Source: Alphaproteobacteria bacterium MedPE-SWcel (GTDB taxonomy: Bacteria > Pseudomonadota > Alphaproteobacteria > Rhodobacterales > Rhodobacteraceae). From it: 64,000 nt of DNA. Positions within the stretch are counted from its first letter, which is position 1. Every line of letters starts with the position of its first letter. The notes under the pieces were generated by a model, which was not told the origin of the DNA, ran no database searches, and saw nothing but the letters and a program-made list of their open reading frames with translations. The stretch is taken from the NCBI GenBank assembly GCA_001874255.1, contig MPDC01000003.1, positions 186,001 to 250,000 on the forward strand, written 5' to 3'. Below are positions 45,430 to 55,215 of the stretch, piece after piece. A program made the position numbers and the translations under genes.

Positions 45430-45612
45430 CTGTTGTGGGGGCTCGGTTTGGCAATAAGGGCCTCTGTTTGCCCCTCACGGCGGCACAGTTGTGCCCGCCA
45501 AAAAGGCGGCGCCCCTCCAAAACTGCTGCTTTTCCGCGCAATTCAGACACCTCCACACATTCAATGTTTCAACAGCTTGCGCGCTACCGGCACTTCGGTC
45601 TGTCCTAGAGCT

Positions 45613-45731
45613 GCAGGGCGCTTAGGGTTCCGTTGTCTGATTTGACAAGCCTGGTCCAAGAAGCGCCACCTGCCTGGCAAAATCCGGGCGGGCACACGGC
45701 GGGGCAAAATCCCGGGAGGTTACTGCGCTGG
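45613..45731 (+). ncRNA. Guanidine-I riboswitch (ykkC class)
   Basis: The diagnostic conserved blocks are all present in order: CTTAGGGTTCCG (45621-45632), a TTGTC/GACAA stem, CTGGTCCAAGAAG (45651-45663), and then ACACGGCGGGGCAAAATCCC followed by GGGAGG (45694-45719). Flanking GCGC segments (45618-45621 and 45725-45728) close the basal stem. Guanidine-I riboswitches turn on downstream genes when guanidinium binds. A second stem (GTCCGC/GCGGAC, about 45736-45769) follows and may be the expression platform. It directly precedes the importer and guanidine hydrolase operon. Confidence 0.93.
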
Positions 45732-45815
45732 TTTTGTCCGCGCCTGATCTCATTGTTCCGCCAGCGGACCCAAAGCCAACCTTGACTTCGGCGGGACGCA
45801 ACAACGGGGAATGAC

Positions 45816-46883
45816 ATGCAGCTGAAACAGATTTTGTCGGCAACAGCCATCTCTTTGGGTGTCTTGGGCGCGCTATCCGCACCACTCGCCGCCCAGGAAA
45901 AGACCGAGTTCAAATTGGCATGGTCCATCTATGTGGGCTGGATGCCTTGGGGCTATCTCGAAGACAGCGGCATAATGGACAAATGGGCCGAGAAATACGG
46001 CATCGATATCGAGATCGTGCAGTTCAACGACTACGTCGAATCCATCAACCAATACACAGCCGGCGCCTTTGATGGCGTTTCCGCCACCAATATGGACACC
46101 TTGTCGATCCCGTCCGGCGGCGGCGTTGACACCACCGCGCTGATCATTGGCGACTATTCCAACGGCAACGACGCGGTGATTGCCAAAGGCGCAAGCAGCC
46201 TTGAAGATCTCAAAGGCAAGCCAGTCAATCTGGTGGAGCTGTCTGTCTCCCATTATCTGCTGGCCCGAGGGTTGGACGCCGTGGGCCTTGAAGAGGCGGA
46301 CCTGGCCTCTGTGATAAACACCTCTGATGCGGACATGATTGCCGCATTCGCGACGCCAGACGTCGAAGCCGTGGTCACCTGGAACCCGTTGGTCTCTGAG
46401 ATCCTTGGCTCCTACCCCGATGCGGTGAACCTCTTTGACAGCTCCAAGATCCCTGGCGAAATACTCGATCTGATGGTCGTGAACACCGAAACCCTGGAGG
46501 CGAACCCGAACTTCGGCAAAGCCGTGGTGGGCGCATGGTATGAGGTGATGGGGTTGATGGCCGCGGGTGACGAAGCCGCGCTGACCGCAATGGCCGAAGC
46601 GTCGGGCACCGATCTGGATGGCTACAAGGCGCAGATGGCGGCGACCGAGATGTTCTTTGAACCGGCTGCTGCGGTGGCGCAGGCCAGCGCGGAGGCTCTG
46701 CCGACGACAATGACCGGCGTGGCAGAATTCCTCTTTGACAAGGGCATCCTGGGCGAAGGCGCACCAAGTGCGGATTTTGTCGGCGTTGCCTATCCGGATG
46801 GCACCGTCACCGGGGATGCGGGCAACGTGAAGTTCCGCTTTGACACCACCTACATGCAAATGGCTGCGGACGGCGCCCTGTAA
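45816..46883 (+). CDS. ABC transporter substrate-binding protein (probable guanidine binding)
   Basis: 355-residue periplasmic binding protein of the nitrate/taurine-like group, close to the type associated with urea-carboxylase clusters. It has a signal peptide (residues 1-26, cleavage near LAAQE), the mature start FKLAWSIYVGWMPWGYLED and the motifs GVSATNMDTLSIPSGGGVDT and FATPDVEAVVTWNPLVSEI. GGGGA precedes the ATG. The riboswitch ends 85 bp upstream, so expression is expected to respond to guanidine, which is therefore the likely ligand. Older annotations would call it a urea or taurine binding protein. Confidence 0.87.
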   Translation: MQLKQILSATAISLGVLGALSAPLAAQEKTEFKLAWSIYVGWMPWGYLEDSGIMDKWAEKYGIDIEIVQFNDYVESINQYTAGAFDGVSATNMDTLSIPSGGGVDTTALIIGDYSNGNDAVIAKGASSLEDLKGKPVNLVELSVSHYLLARGLDAVGLEEADLASVINTSDADMIAAFATPDVEAVVTWNPLVSEILGSYPDAVNLFDSSKIPGEILDLMVVNTETLEANPNFGKAVVGAWYEVMGLMAAGDEAALTAMAEASGTDLDGYKAQMAATEMFFEPAAAVAQASAEALPTTMTGVAEFLFDKGILGEGAPSADFVGVAYPDGTVTGDAGNVKFRFDTTYMQMAADGAL

Positions 46884-46959
46884 CGCCTCGCCACACGAAA
46901 CCGGCTTTGGCAGATGTTGGGTTTGCCAAAGCCGCGCCCAGACACGAGGACGCCCTGCC

Positions 46960-47772
46960 ATGCGCTTGATCAATCACAGACCCGCTCGCCCCGGCGCAGT
47001 CCTGCTTGCAGCGGTGCCGTTTGTGGTGCTGATTGTCGCCTATAGCATCGCGTCTGACATGCGCCTTGCCGCCAACCCGCAAGACAAGCTCCTGCCCGCC
47101 CTGTCGACCATCTCGGACACCGCGCAGCGGTTGTTCACGGTGCCAGACAAACGCTCCAAAGAGATCCTGCTGTGGAAGGATACAGTCGCCAGCCTCGCGC
47201 GGCTCATGGGGGGCGTTGGCATATCCGCGGCCCTGTCGCTGACTTTTGGACTGGCGATTGGTTTGCTGCCCTACGCACGCTCCGCGCTGTCGAGCTTTGT
47301 CGCGGTGGTGTCGATGGTGCCCGCACTTGCCCTGCTGCCGATCCTGTTCATTGTCTTTGGTCTGGGCGAATTGTCCAAAGTGGTGCTCATCGTGGTCGGG
47401 ATCACCCCTTTCATGACCCGCGATCTGGCCCAAAAGGTGATGGACATTCCCAAAGAGCAAATCGTGAAAGCCCAGACCCTTGGGGCCTCCAGTTGGGTGA
47501 TCACAGCACGGGTGGCGCTGCCGCAGATCCTGCCCCGCCTGATCGCAAATATGCGTCTGTCGCTCGGCTCTGCCTGGCTGTTTCTGATCGCGGCGGAGGC
47601 CGTGGCCTCGAACGTTGGTCTGGGCTACCGCATCTTCCTTGTGCGCCGCTATCTCGCGATGGATGTGATCCTGACCTACGTGATCTGGATCACGCTCCTG
47701 GCCTATGTGATTGACTGGTTGCTGAAAACGGTTTCGCGGCGGGCCTTCCCCTGGATGGAGGCGGGCCTGTGA
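46960..47772 (+). CDS. ABC transporter permease (probable guanidine importer)
   Basis: 270-residue permease of the TauC/SsuC/NrtB family with six hydrophobic helices and the EAA loop KAQTLGASSWVITARVALPQ. The frame is open upstream, but MRLINHRPARPG at 46960 starts after the binding-protein stop and has GAGGA nearby. It overlaps the ATPase gene by 4 bp. Confidence 0.88.
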   Translation: MRLINHRPARPGAVLLAAVPFVVLIVAYSIASDMRLAANPQDKLLPALSTISDTAQRLFTVPDKRSKEILLWKDTVASLARLMGGVGISAALSLTFGLAIGLLPYARSALSSFVAVVSMVPALALLPILFIVFGLGELSKVVLIVVGITPFMTRDLAQKVMDIPKEQIVKAQTLGASSWVITARVALPQILPRLIANMRLSLGSAWLFLIAAEAVASNVGLGYRIFLVRRYLAMDVILTYVIWITLLAYVIDWLLKTVSRRAFPWMEAGL

Positions 47773-48536
47773 GCTTTGTCAGTGTCCGCAACGTCTGGCA
47801 GCGCTACGGCGATCGTTCGATCCTCGAGCGCGTGTCTGTTAGCGTCGAGAAAGGCGAATTCATCTCCATTGTAGGGGCTTCGGGCTGTGGCAAGTCCACC
47901 TTCCTGCGCATGCTCCTGGCCGAAGAACGCCCCTACAAAGGGGAGATCCGCATCGAGGGTGGCGAGACCGCGGTGGAGCCCAACCGAGAGCGCGGCGTGG
48001 TGTTCCAGAAATACTCGGTGTTTCCGCATATGACGGTGCAGGAAAACCTGATTGCGGCGGAGGGGTTTCGAACCACCTTTGGCCGCCTGCATGGCGCGGC
48101 GCGAAAAGAGGCGGCACAGAGAGCGGATCAGATGCTGGAGCGCATCGGGCTCAGCCATGTGGCGCAGCACTATCCGGCGTCTCTGTCGGGCGGCATGCAA
48201 CAGCGCCTTGCCATCGGCCAGGCGATGGCTGCCAAACCCCGGATCCTGCTTCTGGACGAACCCTTTGGCGCATTGGACCCCGGTACGCGCCTGCAAATGC
48301 ATGATTTCCTGATGGAACTGCGAGACGAGACCCAAATGACCGTTTTCATGGTGACCCATGATCTTGAAGAAGCCTTCAAGCTGGGGGACCGGGTGTTGGT
48401 CTTTGACAAGCCACGCTGGGACCCTCAGGATCCCAACTTGATTGGCGCGACGATCACCTATGATTTTGACGTGCGCCACGGCGGCATTCCCCATCAGGAT
48501 ATTCTCGATCAATTTCCATCACTTGCGATGGGATAA
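47769..48536 (+). CDS. ABC transporter ATP-binding protein (probable guanidine importer)
   Basis: 255-residue ATPase of the nitrate/taurine group: Walker A GASGCGKST, signature LSGGMQQRLAIGQAMA, Walker B LLLDEPFGALD and switch VTHDLEEA. The GTG start overlaps the permease stop by 4 bp. It belongs to the riboswitch-controlled operon. Confidence 0.9.
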   Translation: MSFVSVRNVWQRYGDRSILERVSVSVEKGEFISIVGASGCGKSTFLRMLLAEERPYKGEIRIEGGETAVEPNRERGVVFQKYSVFPHMTVQENLIAAEGFRTTFGRLHGAARKEAAQRADQMLERIGLSHVAQHYPASLSGGMQQRLAIGQAMAAKPRILLLDEPFGALDPGTRLQMHDFLMELRDETQMTVFMVTHDLEEAFKLGDRVLVFDKPRWDPQDPNLIGATITYDFDVRHGGIPHQDILDQFPSLAMG

Positions 48537-48632
48537 CCTACACGTCCCATGCGCCCCCGGGCTCCGCATGGGATGGTCACCAAGGCTCGGAGATATCTGC
48601 CACACGGCAGGCAATGATTTGGGAGACATCTC

Positions 48633-49904
48633 ATGTTTTCACCTCCAGAACGTACGCGGTCACATCATCCACGTGACCTGCAATCCATCATCACCCGTCG
48701 CGAAAAGCGACAGCATCACCCGGATTTGACCAAGCTGGCAGGCTGGAAAGCCATGCAGAAAGAGGCCGACCTGCCCGAAGGCCGCTGGGACGAGGAACGC
48801 CGCTGGGCCCTGCGCATGGGGCTCACCGGTGCGGACAGTATCGAGGACAAGTCCATCCCCACATTTGCGCGCGGTGAGTTGCCCCATTTCGCCGGGATCA
48901 ATACCTTTCTGAAGGCCCCCTACGCGGAGGACGTACTGCAGGTCGCCAACTACGACGCCACCGTCCTTGGCATCCCCTTTGACGGCGGCACCACCTACCG
49001 CCCCGGCACACGGTTCGGACCACAGGGCCTGCGCAAGATCTCGGCACTTTACACGCCCTACAACTACGAAATCGGCGTCGACCTGCGCGAGCAGATGACG
49101 CTCTGTGATGCGGGCGATGTCTTCACCATCCCCGCCAATATCGAAAAGAGCTTTGATCAGATCTCGCGCGCGGTGAGCCATGTGTTCTCCTCCGGCTCGC
49201 TGCCGATCATGATCGGCGGAGACCATTCGATCGGCTTTCCCTGCGTGCGCGGGATTGCGGAATGCACCTCGAAAAAGATCGGCATCGTCCATTTTGACCG
49301 CCACGCGGACATCCAGGAAAAGGACCTCGACGAACGGATGCACACCACCCCCTGGTTCCATTCGACGAACCTGCCCAATGTGCCCGCCAAGAACCTTGTG
49401 CAGGTCGGTATCGGCGGTTGGCAGGTCCCGCGCGAGGCGGTCAAGGTCGCCCGCGAGCGCGAAACCAATATCATCACCATGGGCGATATGGAGAAGATGG
49501 GCATCGACAAGACCATCGAAATGGCACTGGAGATGGCGTGGGACGGGGTCGACATGGTCTATATGTCCTTTGACATCGACAGTATCGATTGCGGTTTTGT
49601 GCCCGGCACCGGCTGGCCAGAGCCGGGCGGTTTCCTCCCGCGTGAGGCGCTGGCGCTGGCCTCTGGCATCGCCGCCGAAGGCATCTGCGGCATGGAGCTG
49701 GTCGAGGTTTCGCCGCCCTATGACACCTCCGACATCACCGCCCTGATGGGCACCCGAGTGATTGTGGATGTGCTCGGTGCCTTGGTTTCCAACGGCAAGA
49801 TGGGCGCTCATAAGAAGTTCATCGACAAGCCGGTCACCACACCCCATGGCGACTTCGAAGGCCAGCGCTGGTCCAACGCTGCCCCGCATAAGGTAGGTCC
49901 ATAA
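48633..49904 (+). CDS. gdmH: Ni-dependent guanidine hydrolase, GdmH-like (agmatinase/ureohydrolase family)
   Basis: 423-residue ureohydrolase, longer than agmatinase (about 310-350) because of an N-terminal extension of about 100 residues (LAGWKAMQKEADLPEGRW...), as in Synechocystis GdmH (Sll1077). The binuclear metal ligands are visible: GGDHSIGFP (His), HFDRHADIQ (Asp, His, Asp) and MSFDIDSIDCGFVPG (Asp, Asp), followed by TGWPEPGGF. GdmH hydrolyses free guanidine to urea and ammonia with nickel. The guanidine-I riboswitch, the importer and the His-rich protein downstream all agree. Its stop overlaps the next start by 1 bp. Agmatinase or guanidinobutyrase is possible from family membership alone but less likely in this context. 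Confidence 0.9.
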   Translation: MFSPPERTRSHHPRDLQSIITRREKRQHHPDLTKLAGWKAMQKEADLPEGRWDEERRWALRMGLTGADSIEDKSIPTFARGELPHFAGINTFLKAPYAEDVLQVANYDATVLGIPFDGGTTYRPGTRFGPQGLRKISALYTPYNYEIGVDLREQMTLCDAGDVFTIPANIEKSFDQISRAVSHVFSSGSLPIMIGGDHSIGFPCVRGIAECTSKKIGIVHFDRHADIQEKDLDERMHTTPWFHSTNLPNVPAKNLVQVGIGGWQVPREAVKVARERETNIITMGDMEKMGIDKTIEMALEMAWDGVDMVYMSFDIDSIDCGFVPGTGWPEPGGFLPREALALASGIAAEGICGMELVEVSPPYDTSDITALMGTRVIVDVLGALVSNGKMGAHKKFIDKPVTTPHGDFEGQRWSNAAPHKVGP

Positions 49905-50365
49905 TGCCCCACGATCATCCACATCATCATGACCATGACCATACGCACAGCCATGCCCATCACGGGCATGGTCACAATCACCCCCATGGCGACCATCTGC
50001 ACAGCCATATGCATCACGAAGATGAGGCCGCAGATCTGCAGGTTCTGGCCACCCAGTTCATCGAGGGTTTTTTGCAGGCGACAGATAAGACCAGCTATCT
50101 GAAGCTCGCAGGGCTCCCGTTTGAGCGTCCTTCAAAAGACGGCGCCAAGGCGCTGAAGCTGATTGATGTCGAGCTGAAGACCGACTGGCAGGTCGGCACG
50201 GCGTCGCCCTCCTTCGGCTCTCGTGAACTCAGCTACCTCCCGTTCCCCGGCCAGATGGTGCAAGAGCGCACCAACATGTCGCTGATCTATGTGTCGATGG
50301 ATGAAAGATCCACGCTCGACATCCGCGACTTCCTCTATCAACGCAAACAGGAAATAGAAAAATGA
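49904..50365 (+). CDS. His-rich protein, probable nickel-delivery partner of GdmH
   Basis: 153 residues. The first about 37 are nearly all His, Asp, Gly and Pro (PHDHPHHHDHDHTHSHAHH and so on, about 18 His), a metal-storage tail like those of HypB, UreE or SlyD. The remaining 115 residues form a compact domain (LQVLATQFIEGFLQATDKTS, TASPSFGSRELSYLPFPGQM, TNMSLIYVSMDERSTLDIRD) that I cannot place in a family. GdmH elsewhere needs HypA/HypB-like nickel chaperones. None is present here, so this protein may do that job. It overlaps gdmH by 1 bp and the next small gene by 4 bp. Confidence 0.85.
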   Translation: MPHDHPHHHDHDHTHSHAHHGHGHNHPHGDHLHSHMHHEDEAADLQVLATQFIEGFLQATDKTSYLKLAGLPFERPSKDGAKALKLIDVELKTDWQVGTASPSFGSRELSYLPFPGQMVQERTNMSLIYVSMDERSTLDIRDFLYQRKQEIEK

Positions 50366-50517
50366 AACGCGCCCTTTTGACGATCTTGCCTCTTGTTGCT
50401 GCCACCCCTGCGCTGGCCCATGCAGACGGCAGCTTTCACAGCCACGGAGCAGAGCTTTTCCTGTGTCTCGCCGCGATCGGAGGGATCGCCGCAATCGCAT
50501 ATAGAAATATGAAATAG
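50362..50517 (+). CDS. 51-residue membrane peptide of the guanidine operon
   Basis: This short gene starts at the ATGA overlapping the stop of the His-rich protein gene. It has a signal-peptide-like start (MKRALLTILPLVAATPALAH), a short His-containing stretch (HADGSFHSHGAE) and one hydrophobic helix (LFLCLAAIGGIAAIAY) ending RNMK. The layout resembles a minimal HupE/UreJ-type end (His-rich mouth plus helix) and suggests metal handling at the membrane. The tight coupling argues that it is real despite its length. Confidence 0.7.
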   Translation: MKRALLTILPLVAATPALAHADGSFHSHGAELFLCLAAIGGIAAIAYRNMK

Positions 50518-50869
50518 AGTACTCTTGGCCGCCTTTGTTGAGGCTCGCGCCTGCGCAACCTCATCGTCTGGCCTGCCTCCTGGTGGGCAGGTCAGGACCT
50601 CGCGTGCCCCGGTGGGCTCCCGGCTACGACAGGGACGCCTCAGGACACAGGCCTACGACCCCGGTTCTGTCAAAATTGCGCGAATATCCGATCAGGCCTG
50701 CCCCTTACGGGTGGTCCCGGTCAAGCGTTGCTGATGGAGGCGATGTCCTCCGCCGAACGGCATCGTAATCTGGCAAAGTGGTGTGTTGCACGGTATCACT
50801 TCGACCAAGGAACCATCCCCATACCGCAAGGCCCAAGATAGGCGAAGACCGTGTAACGGTTTCGCGTGT
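50518..50869. other. Gene-poor stretch after the guanidine operon
   Basis: No supported reading frame. A modest hairpin CCTGCC/GGCAGG with an 8-nt loop (50572-50591) is the only terminator candidate and lacks a T tract. The stretch leads into an IS110 remnant. Confidence 0.5.
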
Positions 50870-50941
50870 CAGCGTCTTTCGAAGTACAACATTCTCGTCG
50901 TAGTCGACGGCGTGCACTTCAAGAACGTATTGTCCGTCCCC
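50870..50941 (-). pseudogene. IS110-family transposase fragment
   Basis: About 24 codons on the minus strand read GQYVLEVHAVDYDENVVLRK followed by TLTRETV, matching the N-terminal RuvC-like start of IS110/IS1111 transposases (VFQVHGVD...VVLRK). The flanking frame is unrelated on both sides. It is a relic marking past insertion. Confidence 0.5.
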
Positions 50942-51126
50942 AAAGCTCGACACACGCGCGCCTGGCGAATGTAGCGGTGGCTGCCCACAATTTACGCGCT
51001 ACATCCGTTTTTCCAGTGCTTCTATCGGTTGAGTCGCCCTCTGTTGGCGCGCGAAATGGCGCGGAGTGCATTTTTCCGGTAGCATCCAAGAGAGACGGCG
51101 TTCTGAATCTTCAGGAGGACTTGGCG

Positions 51127-52143
51127 ATGGTACATTGGCTCAGAGTTGCAGGTGCCTGCGTCTTTCTCCCCAGTTTTTCCGCCGCAGAGCCGTTACCCGT
51201 CCTGAACCTCGAACCCGAAGCGACAACCGTGTCCGGTCTGTCGAGCGGGGCATTCATGGCGGTGCAGCTGCAGGTGGCGTTCTCAAGTGCCATCTCGGGC
51301 GCGGGCGTTGTTGCGGGTGGGCCCTATGACTGCGCGGATCATTCGCTATGGCGCGCACTCAATGTGTGCATGGATCCGCTTTGGATCGCAGCCGATCCCG
51401 AGACGTCCTTTGATGCCATGCAAGCCCTGGCCGCAGAGAACCGCATAGACCCGCTTCAGGATGTGTCGCCCGACAGGCTCTATCTGTTTCATGGTCAATC
51501 CGATGACACCGTGGCGCGATCGACAATGGACGCTTTGCGCCAAACATATGAGTTGCTGGGCGTGTCTGCAGGCAACCTGAGCTACGTGACGGAGGTCGAT
51601 GCGGGGCACGGGTTTGTCACTGAGCAGGGGCCGGTGACCTGCGATGCAACCCGACCCGATTTCCTGATCGATTGTGATTTCGATCAGGCCGGTGACATTC
51701 TGAACCAGCTGTACGAAGACCTGTCGCCTCCGGTCGAGCCCAGAGACGAAGGGTTCCTGACCTTTGACCAGGCTCAATATACCAACGGCGCAGCGGGCAT
51801 GGACGATATTGCTTTTGCCTATGTTCCGGCTGACTGCGCCGCGGGCGAAGCCTGCCGTCTGCACATCGCGTTGCATGGTTGCAAGCAAGGGCGTCAGGTT
51901 ATCGATGAGGACTATGCGCGGCTGACGGGCTATAATCAATGGGCCGAGGCCAACCGGATCGTCGTGCTCTATCCGCAGGCCATCAGGATAGCTTCGCCCT
52001 GGTACAACTGGTTTGCGGGAAACCCGAATGGATGCTGGGACTGGTGGGGGTATTCAGGGCCGGATTATTTGAGCCGAACGGCGCCACAGCTGTCTGCGGT
52101 GGCCCGGATGGCAGACGCATTTGGCGCGCCTTTGCAGCAATGA
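51127..52143 (+). CDS. Secreted PHB-depolymerase-like hydrolase
   Basis: 338 residues with a signal peptide (residues 1-20, cleavage near SAAEP). The nucleophile elbow is GLSSGAFMA (GxSxG, Ser39), close to the N-terminus as in circularly arranged extracellular poly(3-hydroxybutyrate) depolymerases. The C-terminal half has the HIALHGCKQGRQ and NRIVVLYPQAI motifs and NPNGCWDWWGYSG, which is strongly conserved in that family. Eight or more cysteines suggest disulfides. AGGAG about 10 nt upstream supports the start at 51127. It probably attacks polyhydroxyalkanoate or a related polyester outside the cell. Confidence 0.85.
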   Translation: MVHWLRVAGACVFLPSFSAAEPLPVLNLEPEATTVSGLSSGAFMAVQLQVAFSSAISGAGVVAGGPYDCADHSLWRALNVCMDPLWIAADPETSFDAMQALAAENRIDPLQDVSPDRLYLFHGQSDDTVARSTMDALRQTYELLGVSAGNLSYVTEVDAGHGFVTEQGPVTCDATRPDFLIDCDFDQAGDILNQLYEDLSPPVEPRDEGFLTFDQAQYTNGAAGMDDIAFAYVPADCAAGEACRLHIALHGCKQGRQVIDEDYARLTGYNQWAEANRIVVLYPQAIRIASPWYNWFAGNPNGCWDWWGYSGPDYLSRTAPQLSAVARMADAFGAPLQQ

Positions 52144-52628: not shown

Positions 52629-53276
52629 ATGAAACATATCCTTCTGGCTTTGGCTGCAACCTCTGTCGGCGTGCCTGCAATGGCGCAGGACGCGCGCGAG
52701 ATGGACGCGCATGTCCATGGCGTCTCCACTGCGGAAATCGCCATCGAACACGGCAAGGTCGAGATCACGATCCTCTCACCGGGCATCGATGTCGTCGGCT
52801 TTGAATACGCAGCGACCTCGGCAGCGGACAAGGATGCGGTCGAGGCTGCCATCCGCAGCATGCTCACGCCCGAAAACATCGTGACCCTGCCCGCCGCCGC
52901 CGGTTGCCGCCTGACCGAGGTCCTCGTGCATCTGGAGGGGGGCGAGCCTGATCATGGCGACGCGGATGCGCATATGGAAGAGGATCAGGACCACGACACC
53001 CATGCCGGAGATGATGATCATGATCATGATCACGGTCATGAGGAGCACGCACAGGATCAGCGCGACCACGAGGACCAAATGAGCGAAGGGCAGCATAGCG
53101 AGTTCCACCTGAGCTATGCTTTTGCCTGCGAGGACGAAGACGCGCTGACCTCGGTCGGTTTCCCCTTCTTCGACCGGTTCGAAAATGCGCAGGAGATTGA
53201 GGCGCAATATATCACCGAGACCGCAGCAGGCCAGGCCGAGATCGGCCGCGATGCGCCGGAACTGACGCTGGAGTGA
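52629..53276 (+). CDS. Zinc-binding periplasmic protein ZrgA-like (DUF2796)
   Basis: 215 residues with a signal peptide (MKHILLALAATSVGVPAMAQ) and the DUF2796/ZrgA opening MDAHVHGVSTAEIAIEHGKVEITILSP. An acidic, His-rich loop at about residues 118-150 (DDDHDHDHGHEEHAQDQRDH) and the C-terminal EFHLSYAFACED...VGFPFFDRF complete the family pattern. In Vibrio, ZrgA is the periplasmic part of a zinc uptake system with an FtsX-type permease and ATPase, the same partners found here. GAAAGGA precedes the ATG. A Zur box was not found by eye. Confidence 0.86.
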   Translation: MKHILLALAATSVGVPAMAQDAREMDAHVHGVSTAEIAIEHGKVEITILSPGIDVVGFEYAATSAADKDAVEAAIRSMLTPENIVTLPAAAGCRLTEVLVHLEGGEPDHGDADAHMEEDQDHDTHAGDDDHDHDHGHEEHAQDQRDHEDQMSEGQHSEFHLSYAFACEDEDALTSVGFPFFDRFENAQEIEAQYITETAAGQAEIGRDAPELTLE

Positions 53277-53278
53277 CC

Positions 53279-53968
53279 ATGCAGGAGCCCGCATTGATGC
53301 TGCAGGACCTGCGCTTCACCTGGCCGGGGCGGGCATCGTTCGGACTGTCGGTGCCGGAGTTCTGGATCGGGCAGGGCCAGTCGGTCCTGTTGCTGGGCGA
53401 AAGCGGATCGGGAAAATCGACCCTGCTGTCGCTGATCTGCGGGATCGTCACGGCCGACCGCGGCCGGGTGGAGGTCGGCGGCTGCGACCTCTCGACCCTG
53501 GGGGCCGGGGCGCGGGACCGCTTTCGGGCGGAACGGATCGGGGTGATCTTCCAGCAGTTCAACCTGCTGCCCTATGCCAGTGTTGCGGATAATATCCAGC
53601 TGCCGCTGCGGTTTGCGCCTGAACGCCGCAACCGGGCCGCGCCGGAGGAGGCGGCGGCGCTCTGCGCTGCGCTCGGCCTGCCCGAGGGGATCACCGGCAC
53701 GACGGCCGGGCGCCTCTCTGTCGGTCAGCAACAGCGCGTTGCCGTCGCCCGCGCCCTGATCGGCCAGCCGCCCCTGATCGTCGCGGACGAGCCGACCTCT
53801 GCGCTGGATGCGGCGGCGCAGGACAGTTTTCTTGGCCTCCTCTTCGACCAGATCGCGGCGACGGGGGCCTCGCTTTTGATGGTCAGCCATGACGAACGGC
53901 TGGGCGCGCGATTTGACCGGGTGCTGCGGCTTGCGGATATCGCATCGACCGAGAGGGCTGTGGCATGA
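53279..53968 (+). CDS. ABC transporter ATP-binding protein of the ZrgA system
   Basis: 229-residue ATPase of the LolD/MacB type: Walker [10 protein letters not shown], signature LSVGQQQRVAVARALI (Val replaces the first Gly of SGGQ), Walker B LIVADEPTSALD and switch VSHDERLG. A GTG at 53273 overlapping the zrgA stop is an alternative start; the ATG at 53279 has GGAG 5 nt upstream. It overlaps the permease gene by 4 bp. Confidence 0.87.
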   Translation: MQEPALMLQDLRFTWPGRASFGLSVPEFWIGQGQSVLLLGESGSGKSTLLSLICGIVTADRGRVEVGGCDLSTLGAGARDRFRAERIGVIFQQFNLLPYASVADNIQLPLRFAPERRNRAAPEEAAALCAALGLPEGITGTTAGRLSVGQQQRVAVARALIGQPPLIVADEPTSALDAAAQDSFLGLLFDQIAATGASLLMVSHDERLGARFDRVLRLADIASTERAVA

Positions 53969-55215
53969 TCCTGCGTCTCGCCCTCGGTTCGCTTCTGGCG
54001 CGGGCGCTGACGGTCGGAATGACGATCCTCGCCATCGCCCTGTCCGTTGCCCTTTTCCTGAGCGTTGAAAAGATACGCACCGGTGCGCGGGCCAGCTTTG
54101 CCGATACGATTTCGGGCACCGATCTGATCCTGGGGGCGCGGTCCGGCTCGGTTCAGCTGCTGCTCTACTCCGTATTCCGGATCGGCAATGCGACAAACAA
54201 CGTGACCTGGCAAAGCTATCAGGACATCGCCAGCCGCAAGGAAGTCGACTGGATCGTGCCGATCTCGCTCGGGGACAGCCATCGGCAGTTCCGGGTGATG
54301 GGGACAACGCAGGCCTTCTTTGAACATTACAGATACCGGGGCGGGCGCCCGCTGGAGATCGGGCAGGGGCACGGGCTGAAGGATCTCTACGATGCGGTGA
54401 TCGGCGCCGAGGTCGCGGCCACGCTCGGCTACGCGGTCGGCGACCCGATTGTCGTGTCGCACGGCCTTGCCTCCTTCAGCGAACATGACGACCAGCCCTT
54501 CCGGGTCGCCGGGATCATCGGCCGCACCGGCACGCCGGTGGACCGCACGGTGATCGTCAGCCTCGCGGCGATCGAGGCGGTGCATGTCGACTGGCGCTCG
54601 GGTGCGCAGATTCCGGGCCAGGCAACCCCGGTCGACCGTATCCGGCAGATGGATCTGACACCGACGGCGATCACAGCCGCGCTGGTCGGGGTGAAGTCCC
54701 GGCTTCAGATCTTTGGCCTGCAGCGCTGGATCAATGAATACCCCGAGGAGCCGCTGCTGGCGATCCTGCCCGGCGTCGCCCTGCAGGAACTCTGGCAGAT
54801 CGTCGGCGTGGCCGAATCCGCGCTGGTCGCGGTGTCCGCCATGGTCGTGGTGACTGCGCTGCTGGGTCTGATGGCGATGATCTTCTCCTCGCTGAACGAA
54901 CGCCGCCGGGAAATGGCGATCTGGCGGGCCATGGGCGCGCGCCCCGCGACAATCCTCGGCCTGCTGGTGCTGGAGGCTGCGCTGATGGCGGCCATCGGGG
55001 CGGTGCTGGGGCTGGCATTGCTCTATGCCGGGCTGGTGATCGCGCGGCCGCTGGTTGACAGTGCGTTCGGTCTCTGGCTGCCGATCGGGCTGCCCACCGC
55101 GCGCGAGCTGTCCGTGCTGGCAGCCGTGATCGGCGCAGCGGCGATTTCGAGCCTTCTGCCCGCGCTCAGGGCCTACCGCCTGTCGCTTGCGGATGGCATG
55201 ATGGTGCGGATCTGA
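53965..55215 (+). CDS. FtsX-type ABC permease of the ZrgA system
   Basis: 416 residues: one N-terminal helix (about 12-34), a periplasmic MacB-like domain (40-280), and three C-terminal helices (about 288-312, 338-366, 379-400). The FtsX loop is LNERRREMAIWRAMGARPATI. With the ATPase and ZrgA it forms a zinc-responsive transport cassette. The mechanism of import by an FtsX-type permease is not settled. Confidence 0.87.
   Translation: MILRLALGSLLARALTVGMTILAIALSVALFLSVEKIRTGARASFADTISGTDLILGARSGSVQLLLYSVFRIGNATNNVTWQSYQDIASRKEVDWIVPISLGDSHRQFRVMGTTQAFFEHYRYRGGRPLEIGQGHGLKDLYDAVIGAEVAATLGYAVGDPIVVSHGLASFSEHDDQPFRVAGIIGRTGTPVDRTVIVSLAAIEAVHVDWRSGAQIPGQATPVDRIRQMDLTPTAITAALVGVKSRLQIFGLQRWINEYPEEPLLAILPGVALQELWQIVGVAESALVAVSAMVVVTALLGLMAMIFSSLNERRREMAIWRAMGARPATILGLLVLEAALMAAIGAVLGLALLYAGLVIARPLVDSAFGLWLPIGLPTARELSVLAAVIGAAAISSLLPALRAYRLSLADGMMVRI

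What the first reader, a model, noticed from the sequence alone, without database searches (positions are those of the whole stretch)
45613..50517. Complete riboswitch-controlled guanidine import and hydrolysis operon
All conserved blocks of the guanidine-I (ykkC) riboswitch are visible in order just upstream of a six-gene run. These genes are a binding protein, permease, ATPase, a GdmH-like ureohydrolase with the N-terminal extension, a His-rich protein and a 51-residue peptide. By family alone the genes would be labelled taurine/urea transporter and agmatinase. The riboswitch argues that the real substrate is guanidine. The product urea would need a urease or urea amidolyase elsewhere.
Basis: partly seen in the sequence, partly recalled or inferred. 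Interest (0 to 1): 0.85.

Follow-up and report, generated by a model that had tools for sequence, protein, structure and literature searches.

The report
Guanidine operon with putative nickel helper
A marine bacterium carries a guanidine-sensing RNA switch in front of genes that import guanidine and split it to urea, and the set ends in an uncharacterised histidine-rich protein that may feed nickel to the enzyme in place of the known helper proteins.

Summary
A guanidine-I riboswitch (RF00442, 83.8 bits, gathering score 63; 45611-45720, the only one found in the genome) precedes a binding protein, permease, ATPase, ureohydrolase, His-rich protein and 51-residue peptide. The ureohydrolase is a guanidine hydrolase by sequence: 65% identical to Synechocystis GdmH over 354 residues, with its metal ligands and specificity residues Thr97/Trp305 (here T121/W328). 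A urease lies on the same contig.

Riboswitch, transporter and GdmH are a known kind. The newer part is the tail. The His-rich protein (49904-50365; 'HisR' here) has 20 His in its first 38 residues and a core without His or Cys that has no significant match in Pfam, NCBIfam or PDB sequences. It lies near GdmH in 30 of 30 GdmH genomes from three draws, and in 79 of 79 fetched loci with downstream sequence; 23 of those 30 genomes lack HypB over its cut-off. In S. fredii NGR234 a HupE nickel-permease gene follows it. The 51-residue peptide is a real gene with a relative between ureA and ureB in this genome. Best reading: HisR is a nickel store or donor for GdmH in Alphaproteobacteria, standing in for HypA/HypB. 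The nickel role is inferred from context only; no structure could be obtained.

The parts
45611..45720 (+). guanidine-I (ykkC) riboswitch aptamer
   Evidence: RF00442 83.8 bits, full model; only hit found in the genome
45721..45815 (+). leader between aptamer and first gene; candidate expression platform with an 8-bp hairpin GUUCCGCC/GGCGGGAC before a Shine-Dalgarno-like CGGGGA
   Evidence: hairpin complete in 8 of 13 aligned leaders, 7 of 8 pairs in one, 2-4 of 8 in four; no two-sided standard change, so no covariation support; no intrinsic terminator found there
45816..46883 (+). periplasmic substrate-binding protein, likely guanidine-binding
   Evidence: TIGR03427 509 bits, cut-off 334, named 'putative urea ABC transporter substrate-binding protein'; first gene after the riboswitch
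46960..47772 (+). ABC transporter permease (ATG chosen from homologues)
   Evidence: PF00528 78 bits; homologues align from residue 1 or 2
47769..48536 (+). ABC transporter ATPase, GTG start overlapping the permease stop
   Evidence: PF00005; same order in relatives
48633..49904 (+). guanidine hydrolase GdmH with N-terminal extension
   Evidence: PF00491; 65% to 7esr/7oi1; H198 D222 H224 D226 D314 D316 and specificity residues T121 and W328 identical
49904..50365 (+). HisR: His-rich N-tract (20 His in 38 residues) plus 115-residue core without His or Cys; proposed nickel store or donor for GdmH
   Evidence: no significant Pfam/NCBIfam/PDB match
50362..50517 (+). P51: signal-peptide-like start ending ALA, then HADGSFHSHGAE and one hydrophobic stretch; proposed periplasmic metal-capture peptide
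   Evidence: relatives after HisR in 47 of 79 loci, 43 with the same ATGA overlap (six of the 47 by eye); a relative in the own urease cluster and more upstream of ureC elsewhere

Best explanation
This is a guanidine-assimilation operon. Guanidine binds the guanidine-I aptamer and allows expression of the genes behind it. The ABC transporter imports guanidine. GdmH, a nickel ureohydrolase, hydrolyses it to urea and ammonium. The urease elsewhere on the contig splits the urea. HisR, translated in step with GdmH, gathers Ni2+ on its His tract and, through its core, docks on GdmH and helps load nickel; it stands in for the chaperones GhaA/GhaB of Synechocystis (HypA/HypB type; this typing recalled). 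P51 is a membrane-anchored periplasmic peptide with an N-terminal His that captures metal for uptake, in the slot that HupE holds in S. fredii. Shown here: sequence, gene order, family membership, co-occurrence, urease presence. Inferred: guanidine as ligand and substrate (by homology to tested members), nickel as the metal, and the roles of HisR and P51.
For: Riboswitch. GdmH; T97/W305 specificity from PMC11410670 section 5. HisR in 15 of 15, 11 of 11 and 7 of 7 GdmH genomes in draws of 148, 385 and 398 genomes, 30 distinct; in 79 of the 80 fetched loci, the other ending at the GdmH stop. HypB over cut-off in 7 of 30 of these genomes; in 108 fetched guanidine stretches a HypB query gave one weak hit, which coincides with UreG. 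HupE (PF04955, 153 bits) directly after HisR in NGR234. The P51 profile scores 9 of 10 urease-locus peptides at E 7e-8 or better, above all 200 shuffles (the ten were picked by a motif, see report). Urease alpha in 30 of 30 GdmH genomes, 21 of 70 in a class draw. Activation of Synechocystis GdmH requires GhaAB, as stated in PMC11271267 (passage).
Against: No direct metal evidence and no structure. Comammox guanidinase genes have no nickel chaperone nearby, yet N. inopinata grows on guanidine (PMC11410670). Two Rubrobacter GdmH loci list neither HisR nor HypA/HypB beside GdmH (that gene table is incomplete). So a dedicated helper is not universal. One HisR (L091) has almost no His. 7 of 30 genomes do have HypB. 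The P51 profile scores the HupE N-terminus only 1.4 bits above the best of 200 shuffles, so common descent of P51 and HupE is not supported. P51 was found in 47 of 79 loci. The HisR-GdmH link could reflect joint inheritance of an operon.
Confidence: 0.6

Rival explanations
1. HisR is a general metal buffer or detoxifier that protects the cell when the operon is induced, not a GdmH-specific donor; GdmH takes nickel by itself or through urease chaperones.
For: Comammox guanidinase lacks neighbouring chaperones (PMC11410670). Coexpressing chaperones MetAB had no significant effect on metformin hydrolase activity in extracts (PMC11271267), although the metAB knockout did not grow on metformin there and PMC11399263 reports that activation depended on HypA/HypB. 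A UreE-like protein with a long His tail and a UreG-like one are encoded in this genome (read by eye).
Against: HisR is tied to GdmH: all 30 GdmH genomes have it, and the four HisR matches without GdmH are a false hit or fragments.
Confidence: 0.25
2. The riboswitch and GdmH reading is right, but HisR and P51 are co-transcribed passengers without a metal role.
For: No metal assay exists; the His tract varies greatly in length; P51 not found in 32 of 79 loci.
Against: 76 of 79 HisR tracts hold at least 8 His; in L053 the tract is at the C-terminus; HupE in the same slot in S. fredii; P51 relatives in urease loci.
Confidence: 0.1
3. The operon imports and hydrolyses agmatine, guanidinobutyrate or urea rather than guanidine.
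For: NCBIfam and Pfam labels.
Against: Guanidine-I riboswitch; 546 bits to GdmH against 173 to guanidinobutyrase and 128 to the best agmatinase-named chain apart from the two guanidinases; guanidine-specificity Thr and Trp conserved; agmatinase models score below their cut-offs.
Confidence: 0.03

Closest known systems
Synechocystis sp. PCC 6803 guanidine operon (Sll1077 GdmH, GhaA/GhaB, ABC transporter)
   Same: guanidine-I riboswitch, ABC importer, Ni-dependent GdmH, urease (PMC12186494 passages; PMC8390497 passages)
   Different: has two nickel-loading accessory proteins in the operon (HypA/HypB type, recalled); here no HypB is near and HisR plus P51 stand there
Nitrospira inopinata (comammox) guanidinase locus
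   Same: guanidine-I riboswitch and GdmH-clade enzyme; PDB chain 9fek aligns at 536 bits
   Different: APC permease instead of an ABC transporter, no nickel chaperone nearby
Metformin/dimethylguanidine hydrolase operons of Aminobacter and Pseudomonas
   Same: Ni-dependent ureohydrolases with nickel chaperones HypA/HypB and, in the metformin-degrading strains, a HupE homologue (PMC11399263 passages)
   Different: heteromeric enzymes with other substrates; HypA/HypB rather than HisR
HupE/UreJ nickel permeases and N-terminal-His 'anglerase' domains (PMC12537917 passages)
   Same: signal peptide followed at once by a metal-binding His; membrane-linked; HupE occupies the P51 slot in S. fredii
   Different: P51 has about 30 mature residues and one hydrophobic stretch, no permease domain; sequence link to HupE not significant
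UreE and HypB His-rich tails (recalled)
   Same: flexible His tract of variable length on a small nickel-delivery protein
   Different: HisR matches neither family in Pfam or NCBIfam

Membership tests
Guanidine-I riboswitch (RF00442) | covariance model above gathering score | tested here: met
   83.8 vs 63 bits, full model
Guanidine-I riboswitch (RF00442) | binds guanidine and switches expression | not testable with these tools
   needs in-line probing and a reporter; expression platform not resolved
GdmH guanidine hydrolase | closest to characterised guanidinases, far from agmatinases | tested here: met
   545.6 and 536.4 bits to 7esr and 9fek; next best 172.9
GdmH guanidine hydrolase | Thr97 and Trp305 specificity residues | tested here: met
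   T121 and W328; role from PMC11410670
GdmH guanidine hydrolase | six metal-ligand residues of the ureohydrolase site (which residues: recalled) | tested here: met
   H198, D222, H224, D226, D314, D316 identical to 7esr
GdmH guanidine hydrolase | nickel-dependent activity on guanidine | not testable with these tools
   enzyme assay needed
HypA/HypB nickel chaperones | HypB at the locus or in the genome | tested here: not met
   own genome best 70 bits, cut-off 121; that place is in the urease cluster and reads as UreG
HypA/HypB nickel chaperones | HypA at the locus or in the genome | not tested
   no genome search for HypA was made
HypA/HypB nickel chaperones | HisR belongs to HypA, HypB or another named family | tested here: not met
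   no match in Pfam or NCBIfam, one chance-level PDB hit at E 6.7; remote fold similarity untested
HupE/UreJ permease | P51 matches PF04955/PF13795 | tested here: not met
   only DUF6732 at E 0.018, below its cut-off
Guanidine assimilation operon | route for urea in the genome | tested here: met
   ureC at C23:85592-87316, 963 bits; other urease genes beside it read by eye in L057

The most novel reading that the evidence does not exclude
HisR founds a new class of nickel metallochaperone: a His-tract store on a protein-docking core, dedicated to guanidine hydrolase and evolved in Alphaproteobacteria in place of HypA/HypB. It works with P51, a minimal periplasmic nickel-capture peptide with N-terminal His that also serves urease.
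Probability: 0.5. Interest if true: 0.65.

Novelty: new variant of a known kind. Interest (0 to 1): 0.5.

Why it matters
If true, it shows a second way to mature nickel guanidine hydrolase and names a function for a His-rich family that stays with GdmH in the Alphaproteobacteria sampled, including roseobacters. In two annotated relatives HisR is 'hypothetical protein' and GdmH 'agmatinase family protein', and in one the importer is 'putative urea ABC transporter'; correct labels would turn this into guanidine use. P51 links guanidine and urease operons through one tiny peptide family and offers a simple test of periplasmic nickel capture.

Tried and rejected
So the fold of HisR is unknown.

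P51 as a shrunken HupE: the P51 profile gives the NGR234 HupE N-terminus 9.3 bits, the best of 200 shuffles 7.9; not supported.

Riboswitch mechanism: no terminator after the aptamer; the leader hairpin has no two-sided change. Left open.

HisR matches without GdmH: G101 is a CobW-like protein (naming recalled) with a His run; G454 is a fragment of the binding-protein gene running into HisR; G215 is a HisR piece with an in-frame stop; G682 is a 22-bit fragment. I read them as a false hit and decayed operons.

In-frame TGA flags on GdmH in five genomes: where positions were compared (G197, G022), the match runs past the gene's own stop. I take this as no recoding; the other three were not compared.

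In print: full-text searches and what I saw of eight papers (passages; one section of PMC11410670; outline of PMC12186494) show no such His-rich protein with GdmH. Funck et al. 2022, where neighbourhoods may be shown, is not held, so novelty is not certain.
Full report
What is there. The window (contig C23:186001-250000 of a 4.08 Mb, 99.7% complete genome) holds one guanidine-I riboswitch, RF00442, 83.8 bits, at 45611-45720. Six genes follow on the same strand. Overlaps suggest translational coupling: the ATPase GTG overlaps the permease stop, the HisR ATG shares one base with the GdmH stop, and the peptide ATG overlaps the HisR stop (ATGA). Genomes called 'same genus' include contigs whose lengths equal those of Epibacterium ulvae U95, Tritonibacter aquimaris SM1969 and T. 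litoralis SM1979, so the organism is probably of that roseobacter group (inference).

The enzyme. Best solved relatives are 7esr/7oi1 (546 bits, 'Probable agmatinase 2'; taken as the Synechocystis GdmH, entry identity recalled) and 9fek (536 bits, 'Putative agmatinase 2'; taken as the N. inopinata guanidinase, also recalled). The next match is a guanidinobutyrase at 173 bits. Identity to 7esr is 231 of 354 (65.3%), and metal ligands and the Thr/Trp pair are kept. PMC11410670 section 5 says guanidine specificity in Synechocystis depends on Thr97 and Trp305; with a chain offset of two, which fits both residues, these are T121 and W328 here. The N-terminal extension also aligns.

The importer. 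The binding protein is TIGR03427 (509 bits), which NCBI names a putative urea binding protein. Given the riboswitch and GdmH I take it as a guanidine importer; this is inference.

Urea. A urease cluster lies on the same contig: ureC by model (C23:85592-87316), with ureD, A, B, E, F and G read by eye beside it in L057. Urease alpha is present in 30 of 30 GdmH genomes against 21 of 70 genomes in a class-wide draw that includes this genome. Family make-up differs between the two sets, so this is supportive, not a matched control. In G186 (L085) UreC and UreG lie just upstream of the guanidine genes on the same strand, and no RF00442 match is found there at E up to 0.5.

Riboswitch in relatives. 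By Rfam at gathering score, 24 of 27 operons with upstream sequence have it (window, L034-L037, L042-L053, L055, L082-L086, L089-L092). L086 scores 41 bits, below the cut; L085 and L090 have none; L054 and L088 could not be judged because sequence ends there. A strict two-motif test on the 80 genome-contig loci finds it in 75 of 76 with a binding-protein hit and enough upstream sequence; the one miss (L178) shows the aptamer with small differences. The only other place in 1.27 Mb is L136, where no binding-protein gene was found but riboswitch motif, permease, ATPase and GdmH are kept.

HisR. It starts MPHDH, has 20 His in residues 1-38, and a 115-residue core with neither His nor Cys. Across 79 homologues the tract holds 5 to 27 His, 76 of 79 have at least 8, and 78 of 79 begin MPHD, though starts were picked with a motif that favours this. 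In L053 the His tract is at the C-terminus; in L091 it is nearly gone. Eleven core positions (F, G, D, L, P and Y residues) are invariant in 25 sequences. No Pfam or NCBIfam model matches it at the limits used; the PDB search gave one chance-level hit (E 6.7).

HisR and GdmH travel together. Relatives (148 genomes): GdmH (E up to 1e-100) in 15, all 15 with HisR. Class draw (385): GdmH (E up to 1e-120) in 11, HisR in 13, all 11 shared. Phylum draw (398): GdmH (E up to 1e-100) in 7, HisR in 8, all 7 shared, and every genome with either is in the window's own class. That is 30 distinct GdmH genomes; by the coordinates, HisR lies within about 0.6 kb of GdmH in each. HisR matches without GdmH: four, a false hit (G101) and three fragments (G215, G454, G682). 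Outside Alphaproteobacteria, two annotated Rubrobacter GdmH loci list no HisR or HypA/HypB neighbour in an incomplete gene table; two other actinobacterial records are unannotated there and were not read.

Why nickel. GdmH of Synechocystis is nickel-dependent and its activation requires the chaperones GhaAB (PMC11271267 passages; PMC12186494 passages). The window's genome has no HypB over cut-off; its best hit, 70 bits, lies in the urease cluster and reads as UreG. 7 of 30 GdmH genomes have HypB over cut-off. In 108 fetched guanidine stretches, some cut short by contig ends, a HypB query gave one weak hit, which coincides with UreG. HypA was not searched for. In S. fredii NGR234 (L036) the order is riboswitch, binding protein, permease, ATPase, GdmH, HisR, HupE (HupE by PF04955); SMH12 (L037) has a similar ORF in that place.

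P51. It has a signal-peptide-like start, ALA then HADGSFHSHGAE, then one hydrophobic stretch. A relative follows HisR in 47 of 79 loci: 41 true hits of the automatic test (42 minus the false L153) plus six that its motif missed and that I saw in the same output (L110, L115, L128, L161, L172, L174); 43 of 47 start at the same ATGA overlap. All 47 have His right after the supposed cleavage site, but the test asked for His or Gln there. Among 44 peptides pN is below pS in 923 of 946 pairs, which are not independent. A relative sits between ureA and ureB in the window's own genome. In 30 urease loci a motif search for a signal-like start and AH or AQ, sorted by eye, gave ten candidates upstream of ureC on its strand; whether the other nine lie between ureA and ureB was not checked. 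A profile of the guanidine-operon peptides scores 9 of the 10 at E 7e-8 or better, above all 200 shuffles; because the ten were picked by that motif and the shuffles lack it, this overstates the contrast. PMC12537917 (passages) reports N-terminal-His metal sites joined to HupE/UreJ-2 permeases, a precedent for the idea, not a test of it. PMC4771312 (passages) says 90% of the Roseobacter genomes it studied carry hupE/ureJ homologues, so a separate permease could serve here; I did not look for one in this genome.

How it likely works. Guanidine opens expression; the transporter imports it; GdmH makes urea and ammonium; urease finishes. HisR collects nickel on the tract and its core docks on GdmH; P51 captures metal in the periplasm. 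The last two steps are hypotheses from context. The expression platform is unsettled: no terminator is seen, and an 8-bp hairpin before the ribosome-binding site is complete in 8 of 13 leaders, with no two-sided change.

Verdict. New variant of a known kind.

Noticed in passing
L057:9956-10120 (own genome, outside the window): A 55-residue paralogue of P51 lies between ureA and ureB of the urease cluster; candidate relatives lie upstream of ureC in 10 of 30 urease loci counting this one.
   Followed up: partly
window 52629-55215: A ZrgA-family zinc uptake protein with a His-rich stretch (NF047873, 208 bits) is followed at once by ORFs that read by eye as an ABC ATPase and a permease: perhaps a zinc system 2 kb downstream.
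   Followed up: no
window 50866-52143: Extracellular short-chain polyhydroxyalkanoate depolymerase, type 2 (NF050059, 372 bits), just after the operon.
   Followed up: no
L085 (G186:C17:33600-47600): UreC and UreG lie directly upstream of the guanidine genes on the same strand, and no guanidine-I riboswitch match was found there.
   Followed up: partly
L093 and L087 (G454, G215): Fragments of the operon: a binding-protein piece running into HisR, and a HisR piece with an in-frame stop, both without a GdmH match.
   Followed up: partly
L053:3433-3915: HisR homologue whose main His-rich tract lies at the C-terminus instead of the N-terminus.
   Followed up: no
L136 and L182: L136 keeps the riboswitch motif, permease, ATPase and GdmH but no binding-protein gene was found; L182 (Rhodobacteraceae AG-470-P20) has GdmH and HisR next to a divergent ABC set of another type, read by eye.
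   Followed up: partly
G069 and G286: Two distinct urease alpha genes per genome, the second only just over the family cut-off (695 and 694.5 bits vs 680).
   Followed up: no
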